Shown here: positions 9,062 through 29,515 of the stretch, piece after piece
Numbering within the stretch: the stretch's first letter is position 1
How the letters are laid out: each line of letters opens with the position of its first letter
Assembly (NCBI GenBank): GCA_017523725.1
Contig: JAFWVY010000023.1
Span: forward strand, 62,001-126,000
Source: Bacteroidales bacterium
GTDB taxonomy: Bacteria > Bacteroidota > Bacteroidia > Bacteroidales > UBA4181
DNA: 64,000 bases
Direction of reading: 5' to 3'
Notes under the pieces: generated by a model
Seen by the model: the letters and a program-made list of their open reading frames with translations, nothing else
Told to the model about the DNA's origin: nothing
Databases searched by the model: none
Position numbers and translations under genes: made by a program

Positions 9062-9937
9062 ATGAACAGTCAATTGGCAAGAAAAATGGCAGCGGCGCTG
9101 CTGGCGGCCGCAGTCTGGCTGCCGGCCGGCGCACAGACGGTCCGGGCGGAAGTGGAACTCAATCCGTACACCGAACGTGTGACGGAGGGCGATGCGGCTG
9201 TGTTCGGGCTTCTCCAGGCCGAAGATGTGGTGTACCAACGGACCATATGGCGCATGCTGGACCGGGAGGATGACAGCAATTCGCCGTTCTTCTATCCGGT
9301 TAATCCGGTGGGCGGTAAGCAGAACATGATCACCATCCTGCTGGAGGGCATCCAGCGCGGGGAAGTGACAGCCTATCAGCCGACGGCGCTCGGCAACGAA
9401 TTCCATGCGTCGCTGCGCATGACGCCGGCGCAGGTCGAGACGGCCCTCGGTGCCATCCACGATTCCATCGCGGTGCTCGATGAGAACGGCCGCCGTGTCT
9501 GGGTTGCGCGTGAGCAGGAGAGTCAGCTTGAGGATATTCAGAAGGTGCTCGTCAAGGAAATGGTTTATTTCGACAAGCGGAACGCCCACATGCAGCGGCG
9601 TCCCATCGGCATCTGCCCGATCCGGATGATTCCGAAGGACAGCGGGGACGATTCCCCCGATGACCTGGTACCCCAGCAGACCTTCTGGGTGCCGGTCATG
9701 CCGGTCCGGGACCTGCTGTCCAACAAGTACGTCACAACAAGTGACAACGAGGCCCGCCAGATGTCCATGGAGGCCTATCTGACGCAGCACCGTTACGATG
9801 GCATCATTTATGCTATATCGAACGCGCGTGGTAATCAGCGTCTGGCCGACTATGTGCCGGCGGACGAGGTGGCTGCGGAATCCGATCGCATCGAAGCCGA
9901 AATTGCTTCGTTCGAAGAAAAAATCTGGACGGAATGA
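9062..9937 (+). CDS. gldN: GldN/PorN T9SS ring protein
   Basis: 291 residues with a cleavable signal peptide (about residues 1-25, ending PAGAQ). GldN binds GldK to form the outer periplasmic ring of T9SS. Typical features are YQRTIWRMLDREDDSN, NPFFYPV-like FFYPVNP, and a middle segment on secreted-protein-like strands ending with a helical C-terminus. It lies 12 bases after gldM. Its stop overlaps the next start (ATGA at 9934-9937). Confidence 0.94.
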   Translation: MNSQLARKMAAALLAAAVWLPAGAQTVRAEVELNPYTERVTEGDAAVFGLLQAEDVVYQRTIWRMLDREDDSNSPFFYPVNPVGGKQNMITILLEGIQRGEVTAYQPTALGNEFHASLRMTPAQVETALGAIHDSIAVLDENGRRVWVAREQESQLEDIQKVLVKEMVYFDKRNAHMQRRPIGICPIRMIPKDSGDDSPDDLVPQQTFWVPVMPVRDLLSNKYVTTSDNEARQMSMEAYLTQHRYDGIIYAISNARGNQRLADYVPADEVAAESDRIEAEIASFEEKIWTE

Positions 9938-20151: not shown

Positions 20152-20916
20152 TCAGAGGGTTCCGGCTTCCATCCGTCGGGTCAGTTCCCCTACGGAGATT
20201 ACCTCGTATTTCTTTTTCCTGAGATATTTCACGATTTCCCTGAAGATGTCGGGAGAGGTCGTGACCCAGTCGTGCGCCAGGTCAGGAATGCCGTGGAAAC
20301 AGAAAATGGGGATGGTGCCCGGTGCGGCGTTCTCCAGGATGGCCTTTACCTGTTCCAGCGTGGACAGGCTGTCTCCCTTGATGGTATAGCTCGGTAGCAG
20401 CATCGGATTGGTGTCTTTCTGCGGGTCGAAGGTGCGTTCTTCGCCGGCGCGGGCCGACGTGTAGCCGCGCTCGCGCAGCACGTCCTGTGCCATACGGTTG
20501 TAGTCGTATCCCGGATAGGCGAAAGTCGTGGGACGCGGCAGCCCCTGCGCCTCGCATTGCGTTTCGATGTATTCCAGTTCCCGGTGGAACTCCTCAGCCT
20601 GCATCCGGTTGACATGCTTGTGCGTCCGGGTGTGGTTGCCGATTTCGAACCCCATCCGTCCGATAGCGCCGATCTGGTCCCAGGTCATGTATTGTTCCTT
20701 GTTTTCGAACCCGGGATACTCGCAGATGTAAAAAGTGGCACCGAACCGGTTTTTCCTGAGCAGAGGCGCTACGAAGGTGTAATGCGAACGCGGGGCGTCG
20801 TCAAAGGAGAGTACCACGGTGCGATGTATTTTTTTTCCGGCAGCATCCGGGCAGAGGATTCCGGTAAGGAGCAAAAAAAAGGACATCGTTGAAAGATATC
20901 CTGTCATTTTTTTCAT
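20152..20916 (-). CDS. Polysaccharide deacetylase (NodB fold), secreted
   Basis: 254 residues with a signal peptide (about residues 1-25). NodB motifs: VVLSFDDAP (motif 1, catalytic Asp and metal-binding Asp), GNHTRTHKHV (motif 2, metal-binding His pair), AYPGYDYNRM (motif 3) and IFCFHGI at the end. Carbohydrate esterase family 4 members remove N-acetyl groups from glycans such as peptidoglycan or chitin-like polymers; the substrate is not determined. I chose the ATG at 20916 (KKMTGYLS). The frame is open further upstream to 21024, but that part lies in the tRNA-Val gene. Confidence 0.87.
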   Translation of the reverse strand: MKKMTGYLSTMSFFLLLTGILCPDAAGKKIHRTVVLSFDDAPRSHYTFVAPLLRKNRFGATFYICEYPGFENKEQYMTWDQIGAIGRMGFEIGNHTRTHKHVNRMQAEEFHRELEYIETQCEAQGLPRPTTFAYPGYDYNRMAQDVLRERGYTSARAGEERTFDPQKDTNPMLLPSYTIKGDSLSTLEQVKAILENAAPGTIPIFCFHGIPDLAHDWVTTSPDIFREIVKYLRKKKYEVISVGELTRRMEAGTL

Positions 20917-20933
20917 ATGCTTTTGTATTTGTG

Positions 20934-21008
20934 TGGGTTGCACTGGATTCGAACCAGTGACCCCTACCCTGTCAAGGTAATGCTCTAAACCAACTGAGCT
21001 AGCAACCC
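20934..21008 (-). tRNA. tRNA-Val (anticodon GAC)
   Basis: Minus-strand cloverleaf beginning GGGTTGC with pairing CAACCC at the 3' end, D-arm GCTCAGTTGG..GAGC, anticodon stem TTACC/GGTAG around loop TTGACAG, and T-arm GTTCGAATCC. Anticodon GAC reads valine GUC/GUU codons. The discriminator is A; CCA is not encoded. A good promoter lies at 21022-21052. Confidence 0.96.
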
Positions 21009-21021
21009 GAAAAAGATGGCG

Positions 21022-21052
21022 CAAAGGTACGCGATTTTTTTAACCCGCCAAA
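21022..21052 (-). promoter_or_regulatory. Promoter for tRNA-Val
   Basis: On the minus strand a TTTG -33 element (21049-21052) is followed after 19 bases by TACCTTTG (21022-21029), a full match to TAnnTTTG. This is the cleanest full Bacteroidota promoter in the window. Confidence 0.75.
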
Positions 21053-23772: not shown

Positions 23773-24456
23773 TCAAGCTTTTTTTACAGCGTTGGTGAAA
23801 AAACGCCACAGGGCGTCGTCGGGTGGGTCGGCTTCGACCGCAAGCCGTTCGCCGGTGACCGGGTGTGTCAGCGCGATACAGCGTGCGTGCAGGCTGATGC
23901 CGCCATCGGGATTGGAACGGGGATAGCCGTATTTCAGGTCTCCCTTGATGGGGCAGCCGATGTGGGCGAGCTGGCATCGAATCTGATGATGCCGGCCGGT
24001 TTCAAGCCGGATTTCCAGCAGGTGATACCGGTCGGACGAAGCGAGCAGCCGGTAGTGCATCACCGCTTCCCGCGCTTCTCCGCGGGGCGTGTCATAGCAG
24101 TACGAGCGGTTATTGCGGGTGTCGCGGAGGATATAGTGCGTCAGGGTGCCCTGTGCGTCTGGCGGCAAGTCTTTCACGACGGCCCAGTAGGTTTTCTCGA
24201 TCTGGCGGTCCTGCATCATCCGGTTGAGCCGCGAGAGCGCCTTGCCCGTCCTGGCGAAAAGCACCACACCGCTCACCGGCCGGTCGATGCGGTGCACCAC
24301 CCCGAGGTACACTTGTCCCGGCTTGTGGTATTTTTCTTTGATGTATGCACGTACCTGCTCCTCGAGCGGCATATCGCCCGACGGGTCATACTGGACGATC
24401 TCTCCGACCGCCTTGTTGACGATGATCAGATGGTTGTCTTCGTAGAGCAGTTGCAT
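23773..24456 (-). CDS. RluA-family RNA pseudouridine synthase
   Basis: 227-residue pseudouridine synthase. The catalytic aspartate is in VVHRIDRPVSG (HRxD motif), followed by EKTYWAVVKD and LETGRHHQIRCQLAHIG. No N-terminal S4 domain, so the modified RNA (tRNA or 23S rRNA) cannot be named. It lies between panB and the glucosaminidase gene, with spacings of 9 and 3 bases. Confidence 0.92.
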   Translation of the reverse strand: MQLLYEDNHLIIVNKAVGEIVQYDPSGDMPLEEQVRAYIKEKYHKPGQVYLGVVHRIDRPVSGVVLFARTGKALSRLNRMMQDRQIEKTYWAVVKDLPPDAQGTLTHYILRDTRNNRSYCYDTPRGEAREAVMHYRLLASSDRYHLLEIRLETGRHHQIRCQLAHIGCPIKGDLKYGYPRSNPDGGISLHARCIALTHPVTGERLAVEADPPDDALWRFFTNAVKKA

Positions 24457-24465
24457 GGCATGGCG

Positions 24466-25278
24466 TCAATACTGTTCGTCGCTGTTCGGGAAATCGCCGG
24501 AACGGACATCCTGGACATAATGCCCGATGGCGTCCGTGACAATCGTGTTCAGATCTGCGTAACGCCGCAGGAACTTGGGCTTGAAGTCTTTGTTGATGCC
24601 GAGCATGTCGTGCAGTACCAGCACCTGACCGTCAACACCGTTGCCTGCGCCGATGCCGATGACCGGGATGTCGATTTCGGAGGCGACCCGGGCCGCAAGC
24701 CCGGCCGGCACTTTCTCCAGAACGAGGGCGAAACAGCCCAGATCAGCCAGCAGGCGGGCGTCGCTGACGAGTTTGTCAGCTTCGGCGGATTCTTTGGCCC
24801 GAAGTCCGTAGCCGCCGAACTGATGTACCGACTGCGGCGTGAGGCCCAGGTGTCCCATCACCGGAATGCCGGCCCGGAGGATGCCTTTGATGGCATCGGC
24901 GATGGCGGCGCCGCCTTCCATTTTGACGGCTTCTGCGCCTCCCTCCCGCATGATGCGGATGGCGGCCTGCAGCGAAAGGGCTGGGTCGCTGCAGCAGCCG
25001 AACGGCATGTCGCACACGACCAGGGCCCGTGTGGTACCCCGGGCCGTGCAGGCCGAATGGTAGATCATCTGGTCCAGCGTGATGGGCAGAGTCGTGGTGT
25101 AGCCGGCCATTACATTGGCTGCGGAATCACCGATCAGGATGATATCCACGCCTGCGGCATCGACCATCCTGGCCATACTGTAGTCATAGGCTGTCAGCAT
25201 GGCGATTTTCTCGCCCTGCTGTTTCATGGCGCGCAAGGTCTGCGTCGTCACTTTCTTTGTTTCTTGGTGTACGGACAT
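24466..25278 (-). CDS. panB: 3-methyl-2-oxobutanoate hydroxymethyltransferase
   Basis: 270-residue enzyme transferring a hydroxymethyl group from 5,10-methylene-tetrahydrofolate to alpha-ketoisovalerate, the first step of pantothenate synthesis. It shows KIAMLTAYDYSMARMVDAAG, ILIGDSAANVMAGYTTTLP (metal site), VKMEGG and PVIGIGAGNGVDGQVLVLHD. It is first in a minus-strand unit of four protein genes with a -7 box at 25301-25308. No other pan genes in the window. Confidence 0.96.
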   Translation of the reverse strand: MSVHQETKKVTTQTLRAMKQQGEKIAMLTAYDYSMARMVDAAGVDIILIGDSAANVMAGYTTTLPITLDQMIYHSACTARGTTRALVVCDMPFGCCSDPALSLQAAIRIMREGGAEAVKMEGGAAIADAIKGILRAGIPVMGHLGLTPQSVHQFGGYGLRAKESAEADKLVSDARLLADLGCFALVLEKVPAGLAARVASEIDIPVIGIGAGNGVDGQVLVLHDMLGINKDFKPKFLRRYADLNTIVTDAIGHYVQDVRSGDFPNSDEQY

Positions 25279-25338: not shown

Positions 25339-26988
25339 TTATTTCAGCGCGAAAGGCGTGCCGGTCGAGCCGTTGGCCGGTGCGAAATGCAGGGCGTGCA
25401 GGATGCTCGGAGTCACCGCCGTGATGTCGGTCTCGCCCGGAAGGATGCCGAACGGGATGTTCCATCCGCAGAAGACAAGCGGTACCGCGGCATCGTAGGC
25501 ATAGGACGAATTGCCGGAGGTGGTCAGTGCATCTTTTTCGGTCCAGCCGGGCAACAGGCTGAATACGATGTCTCCCGAGCGCTGTCGGCAGAACCCTTGC
25601 TGGATTTTCTGCGCGACGCCGGCAGTATAGCTGTTGCGCATCAGGTCCTGCGCCGTGAGAACGCAGCTCACACCCGAGATGTCCGACAAGAAACCGGCTG
25701 ACCGCGCCAATATTTCATCCTCCGGAATCTTCTCTGCTTCGAGCAGTGCCCGGTCGAAGTAAAGCTGCTGCCGATAGTAGCCGGAGATCCAGTTCCGGTT
25801 CCCGTAAGTGACATGCAGGAAACTGGTCAGCAAGGAGATGGCGCTGTTGGCGTTGAAGTTGCCTACGTTCATTCTGAGGGATGACATGTAGGCTGGCGGA
25901 TCGGCGCACCCGCCGGTCGAGGAGAATACGACCAGTACGTTGGCCAGTCCGATGGTCCGGTCCAGATAGGACAGCAGTTCGGCGATGTCCCGGTCCAGAC
26001 GTACGAAGGCATCGGCTGTTTCGATGGAGAACGGGCCGAAGAGACTGCCGATGGGACCGGTGGCCGCAAAACTGACAGACAGGAAATCCACGGCATCGTC
26101 CTGTCCGAGTCGTTCTGATTCTATAAGCTTGATGGCCAGTTCTTTGGTAATGGTGTTCCCTTCGGGGACTGCGGTGACGATCTGGTAGTCATCGGTATAG
26201 ATCTTGGCGTTGAGCGGCTTCGGGTCGTAGGGGAAGGTGTGCTGTCCGTTGAACCCGGTTTCCCAGGCGTTGTCGTCTGCGAGCCCGGTGTACTGCGGCA
26301 GCAGCCACTGCGGCGTCCATTTGGTCGAAATGGCCCGGTCGCCCGGTTTCTGGGCGTTGAGTTCCTGAATCCATGCCGGCAGTTGATCCATATAGAAAGA
26401 AGAAGTCATCCACAGGCCGCGGACCGTGTCGAACCAGAAGGCGCCGTCGGCCATGAATCCGGCAGGCAGGATGGCGCCGTCCGGCTGAAGCGATATGCCG
26501 AAGACTTTGCCGCGCATGGAGGTGCCGATTTTGATGGCATCTCCCAGCGTTGAGGCTTGCAGATAGCGGGGAGAATGCTGTCCGCGGGCATAACTCCCTC
26601 CGGTGGGGAAAGTGTGCCCGTCTGCCGTGGCTTCGGTCATGGCCTTCAAGTCCGGGCTGTACCAGCTGTCTGCCACGATGCCGTGTATGGCCGGTGTGGT
26701 GCCGGTGAACAGGGTGGCATAGGCCGGAGCGGCCTGGGTGAAATGGTAGTTGTAAACGGCCTTGGTGGCTGAGAGTCCCTGCCGCATCATCCATTTGAAA
26801 CCATTGTCGCCCATCAGGTGCCCGAATCGTCCCATATAATCCGTGCGCATCTGTTCCACAACGATGGAAAGCACCAGCCGCGGGTGTCCGGCATCGTCCG
26901 TCGCGGGAGAGGTTGCAGTTGGTTGCGGGAAACCCGGCCGGACGAAGAGCAGCAGCAGACCGGTCAGAAGAATTTTTTTTACAGCCAT
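25339..26988 (-). CDS. Alkaline-phosphatase-fold protein lacking the catalytic residues (PafA-like pseudoenzyme)
   Basis: 549 residues with an N-terminal signal peptide (about 1-22). It follows PafA-type phosphatases along its length (VVEQMRTDYM, FTGTTPAIHGI, AILPAG, RLDRDIAELL, RSGDIVFS), but every active-site position I can recall is changed: D38 to E45, nucleophile T79 to A86, N100 to D107, K162 and R164 to Q168 and D170, D305 and H309 to G311 and S315, the D352/H353 pair to G359/G360, and H486 to A501. Without metal ligands or nucleophile it cannot be a normal phosphatase. It overlaps the preceding membrane-protein gene by 10 bases, suggesting coupled translation. It may bind ligands or stabilise a partner (inference). 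Confidence 0.82.
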   Translation of the reverse strand: MAVKKILLTGLLLLFVRPGFPQPTATSPATDDAGHPRLVLSIVVEQMRTDYMGRFGHLMGDNGFKWMMRQGLSATKAVYNYHFTQAAPAYATLFTGTTPAIHGIVADSWYSPDLKAMTEATADGHTFPTGGSYARGQHSPRYLQASTLGDAIKIGTSMRGKVFGISLQPDGAILPAGFMADGAFWFDTVRGLWMTSSFYMDQLPAWIQELNAQKPGDRAISTKWTPQWLLPQYTGLADDNAWETGFNGQHTFPYDPKPLNAKIYTDDYQIVTAVPEGNTITKELAIKLIESERLGQDDAVDFLSVSFAATGPIGSLFGPFSIETADAFVRLDRDIAELLSYLDRTIGLANVLVVFSSTGGCADPPAYMSSLRMNVGNFNANSAISLLTSFLHVTYGNRNWISGYYRQQLYFDRALLEAEKIPEDEILARSAGFLSDISGVSCVLTAQDLMRNSYTAGVAQKIQQGFCRQRSGDIVFSLLPGWTEKDALTTSGNSSYAYDAAVPLVFCGWNIPFGILPGETDITAVTPSILHALHFAPANGSTGTPFALK

Positions 26989-28049
26989 GGGAGAGAATCG
27001 AAAGGAATCATTTCAATGAGTTGTGGAATATAGTTTTGCAGCCGCGGCAGTCCGTGCCGTACCATCAGACACTCTGCCTGCACCAGCAGCACGCCGATAA
27101 TCAGCACGGTGAATATCCGGGCGGCGCGCCGGGGCGACCGGCTGCTGTCGAAGAAGTCGGCCATCAGCAGCGACAGGAACGGCATGCAGCCCATATAGAG
27201 TGCGGCCGGATGGTCCGGCAGCAGGATAATCAGCAGCACAGACAGCAGAGCCGTCCACTGCATCATGGACCATGTGTGCCGGACATCGTTCTGGAACATG
27301 AAGATTTTGCGCCATAGCGCGACGAGTGCGGTCAGCGCCGTGAGAATCAGGACGGCTGCGGTCAGGATGGACAGCCAGGACGGCCAGGTCCATGCATCTG
27401 CCGGCAGACTTCCCGTCAGCCGGATCGGATGCGGGATGTCACGCCATGGGATGTCCCGGAAAACAAACAGCAGACTCTGCATGAGAAAGGCGGGTGTCAG
27501 CAGCCCCAGCAGCGAGGCCGCGGCCGAACGTCCGAACGACACGCTGGTCCATATCATGCTGATCCAGAAAATCAGAATGTACCATGAGGCGGGGCCGTAC
27601 AGCAAGCCGGCCAGGCCGATGAGCAGCCCGATGTCATAGGCGGCGCGTGTTTCTCCTTCCTGATGCAGGGAACCGAGCCGCCGGTCCGTGGCCAGCGTGA
27701 CCAGTACGAAGGCGGCCAGTGCCGTGTTGGGCACGCAGAGATCCGGCAGACAGGTGCAGCCGATGACCATGAGTGCGCCCGGCAGATAGTTCGCAACGCC
27801 GAGATGCCGGCGGTAAATGTGGACGACCAGCGCAATTTCGATGCAGAACAGCACCAGACCGACCGCGCGGTTGTCGAAAACCGTCCGGAGAATCGTCTGA
27901 GCCTGCCCCGGGCTGTCCCACAAAGCAGTCCAAAGCGGACGGGCGTCTGCGCCGCAGCCTCCCCACGACAACTGCAGCCCGAACAGCACCGCTGCCAGCA
28001 GGGTCAGGACAAATGCAGCATAGGACTTGGAGCTGAAGAAGGAGAACAT
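26979..28049 (-). CDS. Polytopic membrane protein (possibly DUF6427-like), function unknown
   Basis: 356 residues with about nine or ten hydrophobic helices and short polar loops, including VLTLLAAVLFGLQL near the start, LVLFCIEIALVVHIY, IGLAGLLYGPASWYILIFW and LTAAVLILTALTALVAL. The pattern resembles DUF6427 membrane proteins of Bacteroidota, a tentative match. It is 6 bases downstream of purD and overlaps the pseudophosphatase by 10 bases, so the three are probably one operon. No substrate or catalytic motif is evident. Confidence 0.7.
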   Translation of the reverse strand: MFSFFSSKSYAAFVLTLLAAVLFGLQLSWGGCGADARPLWTALWDSPGQAQTILRTVFDNRAVGLVLFCIEIALVVHIYRRHLGVANYLPGALMVIGCTCLPDLCVPNTALAAFVLVTLATDRRLGSLHQEGETRAAYDIGLLIGLAGLLYGPASWYILIFWISMIWTSVSFGRSAAASLLGLLTPAFLMQSLLFVFRDIPWRDIPHPIRLTGSLPADAWTWPSWLSILTAAVLILTALTALVALWRKIFMFQNDVRHTWSMMQWTALLSVLLIILLPDHPAALYMGCMPFLSLLMADFFDSSRSPRRAARIFTVLIIGVLLVQAECLMVRHGLPRLQNYIPQLIEMIPFDSLPWL

Positions 28050-28055
28050 GGTCGC

Positions 28056-29333
28056 TTACAGGCGTTGGAGGTCTTCGCCGATGTCCCGGCGGTTGTATTT
28101 GCCTTCGAAGGTGATGAGCGCAGCATTCCGGTTGGATTTTTCGAGCGCTTCGGCAATGGAGCCTCCCATGGCGGAGACCGAGATGACACGTCCGCCCGCC
28201 GTGACCACCTGTCCGTCCTGCCATTGCGTGCCGGCGTGGAACGCAATGGCGTCGGTCACCCGGTCGAGGCCTGTGATGGGCTTCCCTTTTTCGTAGCTGC
28301 CCGGATACCCGCCGGATACCAGCATGACGGTCGTGGCCGTCTGCGGGCTGATGGCGATTTGCTGCCGGTCGAGCGTCCGGTCTGCGGTGGCAGTGAACAG
28401 TTCGACGATATCCGATGAAATGCGCGGCATCACGGCTTCCGTTTCGGGATCGCCCATGCGGACATTGTACTCGATGACCATCGGGTCACCCTTGACATTG
28501 ATCAGTCCGAAGAAGATGAATCCCTGATAGTCGATGCCTTCCTGCCGCAGCCCGTCAACGGTGGGGCGGATGATGCGCTCCTCCACTTTCTGCATGAACG
28601 TGCGGTCTGCGAAGGGGACCGGCGATACGGCACCCATGCCGCCCGTGTTGGGTCCGGTGTCGCCTTCGCCGATGCGCTTGTAATCCTTGGCTTCGGGCAG
28701 CAGCACATAGTGCGTGCCGTCGGTCAGGATGAACACTGACAGCTCGATGCCCTCCAGGTATTCCTCGATGACCACGGTGGCGCTGGCTTCGCCGAATTTG
28801 CCGGCGAACATGGCATGCAGCTCTTGTACGGCTTCATCGCGCGAGGACAGGATCAGCACACCTTTGCCTGCGGCCAGGCCGTCGGCCTTGAGTACGTAGG
28901 GCGGTTGCAGTGTCTCCAGGAAGCCGACGGCCTCGGCTTCTTCGGAAGCCTTGAAACTTCTGTAGCGGGCCGTGGGGATGTGGTGACGCACCATGAAGGC
29001 CTTGGAGAACTCCTTGCTTCCTTCGAGCCGGGCACCGGCCTGGAAGGGGCCGATGAACCGGATGTCGCGCAAAGCGGGATTGGCGGCGAAATAGTCCCGG
29101 ATGCCCCGCACCAACGGTTCTTCCGGTCCGACGACTACCATGTCGATGCCGGTCTGCAGGCAGAACTCGGCGATGCCGCCGAAATCGTTCGGTTTCAGGG
29201 CTACGTTGGTGCCAACGGAGGCTGTGCCGGCATTGCCGGGGGCGATGTACAGTTTCGACAGCAGGGGACTCCGGGCTATTTTCCAGGCCAGTGCGTGGCA
29301 GCGTCCGCCGGAGCCTATCAGTAAGATATTCAT
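28056..29333 (-). CDS. purD: Phosphoribosylamine-glycine ligase
   Basis: 425-residue ATP-grasp enzyme converting 5-phosphoribosylamine and glycine to GAR in purine synthesis. It begins [18 protein letters not shown], followed by [12 protein letters not shown], the ATP-grasp core ([45 protein letters not shown]) and [14 protein letters not shown]. Start taken at 29333, aligning with family N-termini; the frame is open to 29480 but adds an unrelated Lys/Arg-rich extension. First gene of purD-membrane protein-pseudophosphatase. Confidence 0.96.
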
Positions 29334-29515
29334 ATAGATTGGAATGTTTAGAACAGATGCAACAAAAAAGATGTCGAATAAAAAGTAAAGATACAAAGAA
29401 TCCCGGCCGCTGCAAATGTTTTTTTTGCAGCAACTTTGGCGGCGAATGTTGTCGGGCGTCAGATTTTTTCGTATCTTCATCCCCAGTTTTCCCTTTATGG
29501 GGTATTTCCTGCAAA

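What the first reader, a model, noticed from the sequence alone, without database searches (positions are those of the whole stretch)
25339..26988. Alkaline-phosphatase-fold pseudoenzyme that has lost its whole active site
Aligned by eye to PafA from memory, the nucleophile, all six metal ligands and the three phosphate-binding residues are changed (A86, E45, G311, S315, G359/G360, A501, D107, Q168, D170), while the rest of the protein stays close to the family. It overlaps the preceding membrane-protein gene by 10 bases, and the two follow purD. A secreted pseudophosphatase coupled to a polytopic membrane protein suggests a binding or sensing pair.
Basis: partly seen in the sequence, partly recalled or inferred. 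Interest (0 to 1): 0.65.

Follow-up and report, generated by a model that had tools for sequence, protein, structure and literature searches.

The report
Dead phosphatase widespread in Bacteroidales
This gene makes a secreted protein folded like the bacterial alkaline phosphatase PafA but with every catalytic and metal-binding residue replaced; such inactive relatives are old, widespread and under selection in the bacterial order Bacteroidales, and in many species their gene follows (once is fused to) the enzyme that adds the last fatty acid to lipoproteins, so they probably help that step rather than cut phosphate.

Summary
The gene is on the minus strand (25339-26988, 549 aa). The predicted structure is PafA-like (VIA Z 59.5, rmsd 2.0 over 512 residues), and all ten PafA catalytic and metal positions are substituted.

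It is not an isolated oddity but belongs to an old Bacteroidales family. Of 110 family sequences aligned with PafA, 13 keep 9-10 of the ten residues and 97 keep 0-6. Close degenerate pairs have dN/dS 0.03-0.15, and decay is confined to the active-site region.

The proposed pairing with the neighbouring membrane protein is weak: purD-membrane protein is an old pair that the pseudophosphatase joined only in this family (two genera). A type IX secretion role is not supported: 13 of 20 genomes without SprA keep a member.

Elsewhere the pseudophosphatase directly follows lnb, the lipoprotein N-acyltransferase: 23 loci, secA next in 20, and one genome fuses the two (924 aa). Families with lnb alone carry a member far more often than families with lnt alone (36/40 against 20/56). 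Best reading: a catalytically dead accessory of lipoprotein N-acylation. For the window's copy, whose lnb lies elsewhere, this is inferred.

The parts
25339..26988 (-). pseudo-PafA: secreted alkaline-phosphatase-fold protein, 549 aa, all ten PafA catalytic/metal positions substituted
   Evidence: PF01663 E 3e-25; NF042991 PafA 466 bits against a cut-off of 650; PafA 5tj3 E 1.7e-87; active-site table; AF2 pLDDT 88, VIA Z 59.5 to 5tj3
26979..28049 (-). polytopic membrane protein of no known family, 356 aa, ends 10 bases inside the pseudo-PafA gene
   Evidence: no Pfam match even at E 10; about 8-9 hydrophobic segments; homologues follow purD in other Bacteroidales
28056..29480 (-). purD, phosphoribosylamine-glycine ligase
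   Evidence: TIGR00877 458.6 bits, over cut-off
24466..25278 (-). panB, downstream gene (same order in genome G003)
   Evidence: TIGR00222 318 bits; purD-membrane protein-pseudo-PafA-panB-rluA order in G003
23773..24456 (-). RluA-family pseudouridine synthase, downstream gene (same order in genome G003)
   Evidence: PF00849; order in G003

Best explanation
The gene encodes an exported (periplasmic) pseudophosphatase: a PafA fold kept by selection after its catalytic machinery was given up. SHOWN by computation: fold kept, active site lost, an old Bacteroidales family of such proteins, purifying selection in close relatives, decay confined to the active-site region, independence from type IX secretion, and recurrent linkage to lipoprotein N-acyltransferase genes. 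INFERRED: the protein acts as a non-catalytic accessory of lipoprotein N-acylation (the third acyl chain, added by Lnb), most likely by docking on the periplasmic face of Lnb and helping it hold or receive its substrate (the diacylated lipoprotein, or the phospholipid donor, whose phosphate head group could fit the ancestral pocket). FURTHER INFERRED: the window's copy, which is the only family member in its genome and whose lnb lies on another contig near sprA, does the same job as the lnb-linked copies.
For: Active site lost 10/10. Model matches PafA at Z 59.5, rmsd 2.0 over 512 residues. Kept-residue counts are bimodal, 9-10 or 0-6. Degenerate and intact sequences fall on two sides of one tree branch (weak support). 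dN/dS 0.03-0.15 in degenerate pairs. Only 14 columns conserved in intact PafA are lost in the degenerate set, seven of them catalytic, most of the rest adjacent. lnb-pseudo-PafA adjacency in L140-L144 and L146 (Lnb named by PF13387+PF25221) and in 17 of 40 further lnb loci, lnb-pseudo-PafA-secA in 15 of these. Every lnb-linked copy is degenerate, 1-3 of 10 kept. Single 924-aa Lnb-pseudo-PafA ORF in G052. lnt upstream of pseudo-PafA in L018 and L102. Family member in 36/40 lnb-only and 20/56 lnt-only families, p 6e-8. Own genome has Lnb.
Against: In the window's genome and in most environmental Bacteroidales the gene is not next to lnb. Four of 40 lnb-only families lack a member and 20 of 56 lnt-only families have one (some of these are true PafA). 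The co-occurrence is not corrected for phylogeny. The fusion was seen in one genome. No interaction or phenotype is known. The window's copy has a long branch (1.45-1.59 changes per site), so selection on it could not be measured directly.
Confidence: 0.42

Rival explanations
1. It is a non-catalytic binding protein or scaffold (for phosphate, phospholipid or glycan) in the periplasm with no special tie to lipoprotein acylation; the lnb-pseudo-PafA-secA order is only a conserved housekeeping operon.
For: Conserved core and no strong new invariant residues; environmental members sit in many different neighbourhoods.
Against: The Lnb fusion, two unrelated acyltransferases upstream, and the co-occurrence with lnb.
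Confidence: 0.25
2. Pseudophosphatase that forms a binding or sensing pair with the overlapping membrane protein encoded after purD.
For: 10-base overlap; the same purD-membrane protein-pseudo-PafA-panB-rluA order in genome G003 of another genus in the family.
Against: The membrane protein is a purD companion in at least 10 other genomes without pseudo-PafA beside it, and pseudo-PafA has other neighbours in almost all genomes.
Confidence: 0.12
3. It is an enzyme with a rebuilt active site (different metal or nucleophile), not a pseudoenzyme.
For: Some degenerate relatives keep T/S79, H353, H486 or acidic residues, so partial metal sites are possible in them.
Against: The window copy has G, S, T, G, G at five metal positions and A at the nucleophile; the former site varies freely across the family and no new conserved catalytic-looking set replaces it.
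Confidence: 0.1
4. It is an accessory of the type IX secretion system.
For: Often near gldD-gldE and carboxypeptidases with T9SS tails; once directly downstream of sprA (G047).
Against: 13 of 20 listed genomes without SprA keep a strong family member; many genomes with SprA lack one.
Confidence: 0.05
5. It is a decaying pseudogene.
For: Long branch and total loss of the active site in this copy.
Against: Full-length ORF with codon-position GC like its neighbours, confident fold, gene order kept in G003, low dN/dS in relatives.
Confidence: 0.02

Closest known systems
PafA alkaline phosphatase (Elizabethkingia meningoseptica, PDB 5tj3; NCBIfam NF042991)
   Same: Whole fold (Z 59.5, rmsd 2.0 over 512 residues), about 32% identity, most structural invariants
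   Different: Nucleophile, six metal ligands and the N100/K162/R164 phosphate-binding residues all replaced; scores 466 bits against the curated 650
PhoK/SPAP phosphatase of Sphingomonas (3q3q, 5xwi)
   Same: Same fold family (Z 42.1 to 3q3q)
   Different: PhoK is catalytic; more distant (about 20% identity)
Lnb, lipoprotein N-acyltransferase of Bacteroides (DUF4105; Armbruster et al. 2024, doi 10.1073/pnas.2410909121, cited in PMC12994826 and PMC13103446; not held here)
   Same: Proposed partner: gene adjacent in 12 families and fused once
   Different: Not homologous; Lnb is the membrane enzyme, the pseudo-PafA a periplasmic domain without an active site
PorX effector domain (AP superfamily, type IX secretion regulator; PMC11320123)
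   Same: AP-superfamily fold in Bacteroidota
   Different: PorX is a response regulator; this protein is exported, close to PafA, and found in genomes without T9SS

Membership tests
PafA alkaline phosphatase (NF042991) | PafA fold over the full length | tested here: met
   VIA Z 59.5, 512 aligned residues, rmsd 2.0
PafA alkaline phosphatase (NF042991) | Curated score at or above 650 bits | tested here: not met
   466.2 bits
PafA alkaline phosphatase (NF042991) | Nucleophile T79, Zn ligands D38/D305/H309/D352/H353/H486, phosphate-binding N100/K162/R164 | tested here: not met
   0 of 10 kept
PafA alkaline phosphatase (NF042991) | Phosphomonoesterase activity | not testable with these tools
   needs purified protein
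Type I phosphodiesterase/AP superfamily (PF01663) | Pfam match over gathering score | tested here: met
   89.8 bits against 23
Bacteroidales degenerate PafA-like clade (described here) | Degenerate active site and position on the degenerate side of the tree | tested here: met
   the separating branch is weakly supported (23; 55/85)
Lnb-associated accessory | Gene adjacent or fused to lnb | tested here: not met
   Not in the window's genome, where lnb is on contig C52; met in 23 other loci plus one fusion
Lnb-associated accessory | Lnb present in the same genome | tested here: met
   G000:C52, PF13387 and PF25221
Lnb-associated accessory | Physical contact with Lnb, or an N-acylation phenotype | not testable with these tools
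   needs experiments
Type IX secretion component | Absent from genomes that lack the system | tested here: not met
   13 of 20 listed SprA-less genomes keep a member

The most novel reading that the evidence does not exclude
Bacteroidales lipoprotein N-acylation uses a second, previously unrecognised component: a pseudophosphatase derived from PafA that binds Lnb (and can be fused to it), using a dead phosphate-monoester pocket to hold the phospholipid donor or the lipoprotein, in a step thought to need only the acyltransferase.
Probability: 0.3. Interest if true: 0.8.

Novelty: new variant of a known kind. Interest (0 to 1): 0.62.

Why it matters
A major envelope-protein family of an ecologically and medically important order resembles an active alkaline phosphatase although most members cannot be one: in 392 Bacteroidales genomes, 239 carry a strong match and only 22 exceed the PafA cut-off. 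Surveys that count PafA homologues as phosphatases may overcount. The link to Lnb gives a directly testable role in a step whose enzyme was identified only in 2024, and a natural fusion to start from.

Tried and rejected
T9SS accessory role: tested by survey of SprA and GldN; both are nearly ubiquitous and T9SS-less genomes keep the family. Purine link via purD: purD pairs with the membrane protein, not with this gene. Pseudo-specific conserved residues that could mark a new active site: none strong. Single loss: compatible with the trees but the key branch is weakly supported. Pfam for the membrane protein: no match. Neighbours of environmental members (M14 carboxypeptidase with T9SS tail, S8 protease, crcB, ychF, gldD/gldE): recurrent but lineage-specific, no common partner. 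Literature searches found no description of the family or of the lnb-linked gene in the held library; the Lnb paper itself is not held.

Full report
WHAT IS THERE. The gene lies on the minus strand at 25339-26988 and encodes 549 aa with an export-signal-like start (MAVKKILLTGLLLLFVRPGFPQ..., read by eye). It matches PF01663 and the PafA model NF042991 with 466 bits, below that model's cut-off of 650. The closest solved structure by sequence is PafA 5tj3 (E 1.7e-87). Aligned with PafA and 29 relatives, the ten catalytic positions read D38>E45, T79>A86, N100>D107, K162>Q168, R164>D170, D305>G311, H309>S315, D352>T358, H353>G359, H486>G492. Which residues are the six metal ligands is established knowledge of PafA, recalled here; the four positions T79, N100, K162 and R164 are also fixed by the engineered mutant 5too. 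An AlphaFold2 model from alignment A1 has mean pLDDT 88 and pTM 0.88. It aligns to PafA with TM 0.93 (Foldseek, normalised by PafA's length) and VIA Z 59.5, rmsd 2.0 over 512 residues, so the fold is kept and the known chemistry is gone. It is the only family member in its genome.

AN OLD FAMILY, NOT A ONE-OFF. 42 of 60 relatives carry a homologue, and a named-genome scan gave 502 relatives, of which the best 80 were fetched, mostly Bacteroidales MAGs. Of 110 sequences placed on the PafA columns (some of them near-duplicates), 13 keep 9-10 of the ten residues and 97 keep 0-6, with none at 7-8. Eleven further distant full-length members keep 1-3. In trees the degenerate and intact rows are two sides of one branch. 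Support for that branch is weak (23; 55/85), so a single loss is compatible but not proven.

SELECTION. Close degenerate pairs have dN/dS 0.03-0.15. Only 14 columns are conserved in at least 90% of intact PafA and in under 40% of 72 degenerate members. Seven are catalytic (D38, T79, N100, K162, R164, D305, H309) and most of the others are adjacent in sequence (H83, Y112, D163, Y306, F348, A351, G534). Of 139 columns conserved in the degenerate set, 95 are conserved with the same residue in the intact set, and only three weakly conserved positions are specific to it. The family kept the scaffold and let the active site drift. The window copy itself has no close relative, so its own dN/dS could not be measured; its codon-position GC resembles its neighbours'.

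SURROUNDINGS IN THE WINDOW. The preceding membrane protein has no Pfam match and about 8-9 hydrophobic segments. Its homologues lie beside purD in at least 10 other genomes of the order, without the pseudophosphatase there. The complete purD-membrane protein-pseudo-PafA-panB-rluA order occurs in G003, another genus of the same family. The purD-membrane protein pair is therefore old and the pseudophosphatase a later neighbour.

NOT TYPE IX SECRETION. SprA is present in 370 of 392 order genomes at least 90% complete, and GldN was found in 57 of 60 relatives. Of the 20 listed genomes without SprA, 13 keep a strong family member.

THE RECURRENT PARTNER. In gut-type Bacteroidales the gene directly follows lnb (PF13387 Lnb_N + PF25221 5TMH_Lnb) and usually precedes secA: six loci, five with secA (SecA named). 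Of 40 further lnb loci, chosen from the lnb hit list before their neighbours were known, 17 have pseudo-PafA immediately downstream, 15 of them with secA next; by chance far fewer than one would be expected. Together these 23 loci and the fusion genome cover families f3, f20, f22, f24, f26, f29, f42, f59, f60, f85, f100 and f104. Every lnb-linked copy is degenerate, 1-3 of ten residues kept, also in genomes that own a true PafA elsewhere (: G135, G236, G375). In G052 the two are one open reading frame of 924 aa (L147:7140-9911 minus), with Lnb_N at 27-176, 5TMH_Lnb at 253-375 and Phosphodiest at 422-861. In two related loci the unrelated acyltransferase Lnt, which performs the same step, lies upstream of the pseudophosphatase with one small ORF between them: L102 by NCBIfam, L018 by its position and its translation. 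The literature describes DUF4105/Lnb and Lnt displacing each other in several genomic contexts, and Lnb as the Bacteroides lipoprotein N-acyltransferase (PMC12994826; PMC13103446).

CO-OCCURRENCE. With one genome per family, a PafA-family member is present in 36/40 lnb-only, 8/10 both, 20/56 lnt-only and 0/2 neither (Fisher p 6e-8 for lnb-only against lnt-only). This is not corrected for phylogeny, and some lnt-only members are true PafA. The window genome is lnb-only and has the pseudo-PafA.

MECHANISM. Most likely the protein is a periplasmic, non-catalytic accessory of lipoprotein N-acylation. Linkage, fusion, co-occurrence and the dead active site are shown. Docking on Lnb and presenting the lipoprotein or phospholipid is inferred. 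That the window's unlinked copy does the same is a further inference, resting on its being the only family member in an lnb-only genome. Rivals are a generic scaffold, a pair with the membrane protein, a rebuilt enzyme and a T9SS role, in that order.

NOVELTY. The fold family is known; an order-wide set of its pseudoenzymes tied to lnb was not found described in the held library. I could not read the original Lnb paper, which may mention the neighbouring gene.

Noticed in passing
window 26979-28049 (-), and L127-L139: A polytopic membrane protein with no Pfam match lies beside purD in many Bacteroidales genomes; old pair, function unknown, fast evolving.
   Followed up: partly
L147:7140-9911 (-), genome G052: Single 924-aa ORF fusing Lnb (lipoprotein N-acyltransferase) to a degenerate PafA domain.
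   Followed up: yes
L156:808-2001 (-), genome G000 contig C52: The window genome's lnb lies after sprA and a gcvH-like gene, followed by a radical-SAM methylthiotransferase-like gene.
   Followed up: partly
window 9089-9931 (+): GldN of the type IX secretion system lies about 15 kb from the pseudophosphatase.
   Followed up: no
window 20933-21008 (-): A tRNA-Val gene lies inside the 5' end of the polysaccharide-deacetylase-like ORF as called at 20152-21024; the real start is probably near the MKKMTGYL segment.
   Followed up: partly
L033, L037, L038, L059, L062, L066 and others: In environmental Bacteroidales the pseudophosphatase follows ychF and an M14 carboxypeptidase with a T9SS tail, and often precedes an S8 protease and the gldD-gldE-ssb-mutY region.
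   Followed up: partly
L102, L018: lnt upstream of the pseudophosphatase, separated by one small ORF of about 100 aa.
   Followed up: partly
G047:C400: A degenerate copy lies directly downstream of sprA on the same strand.
   Followed up: no
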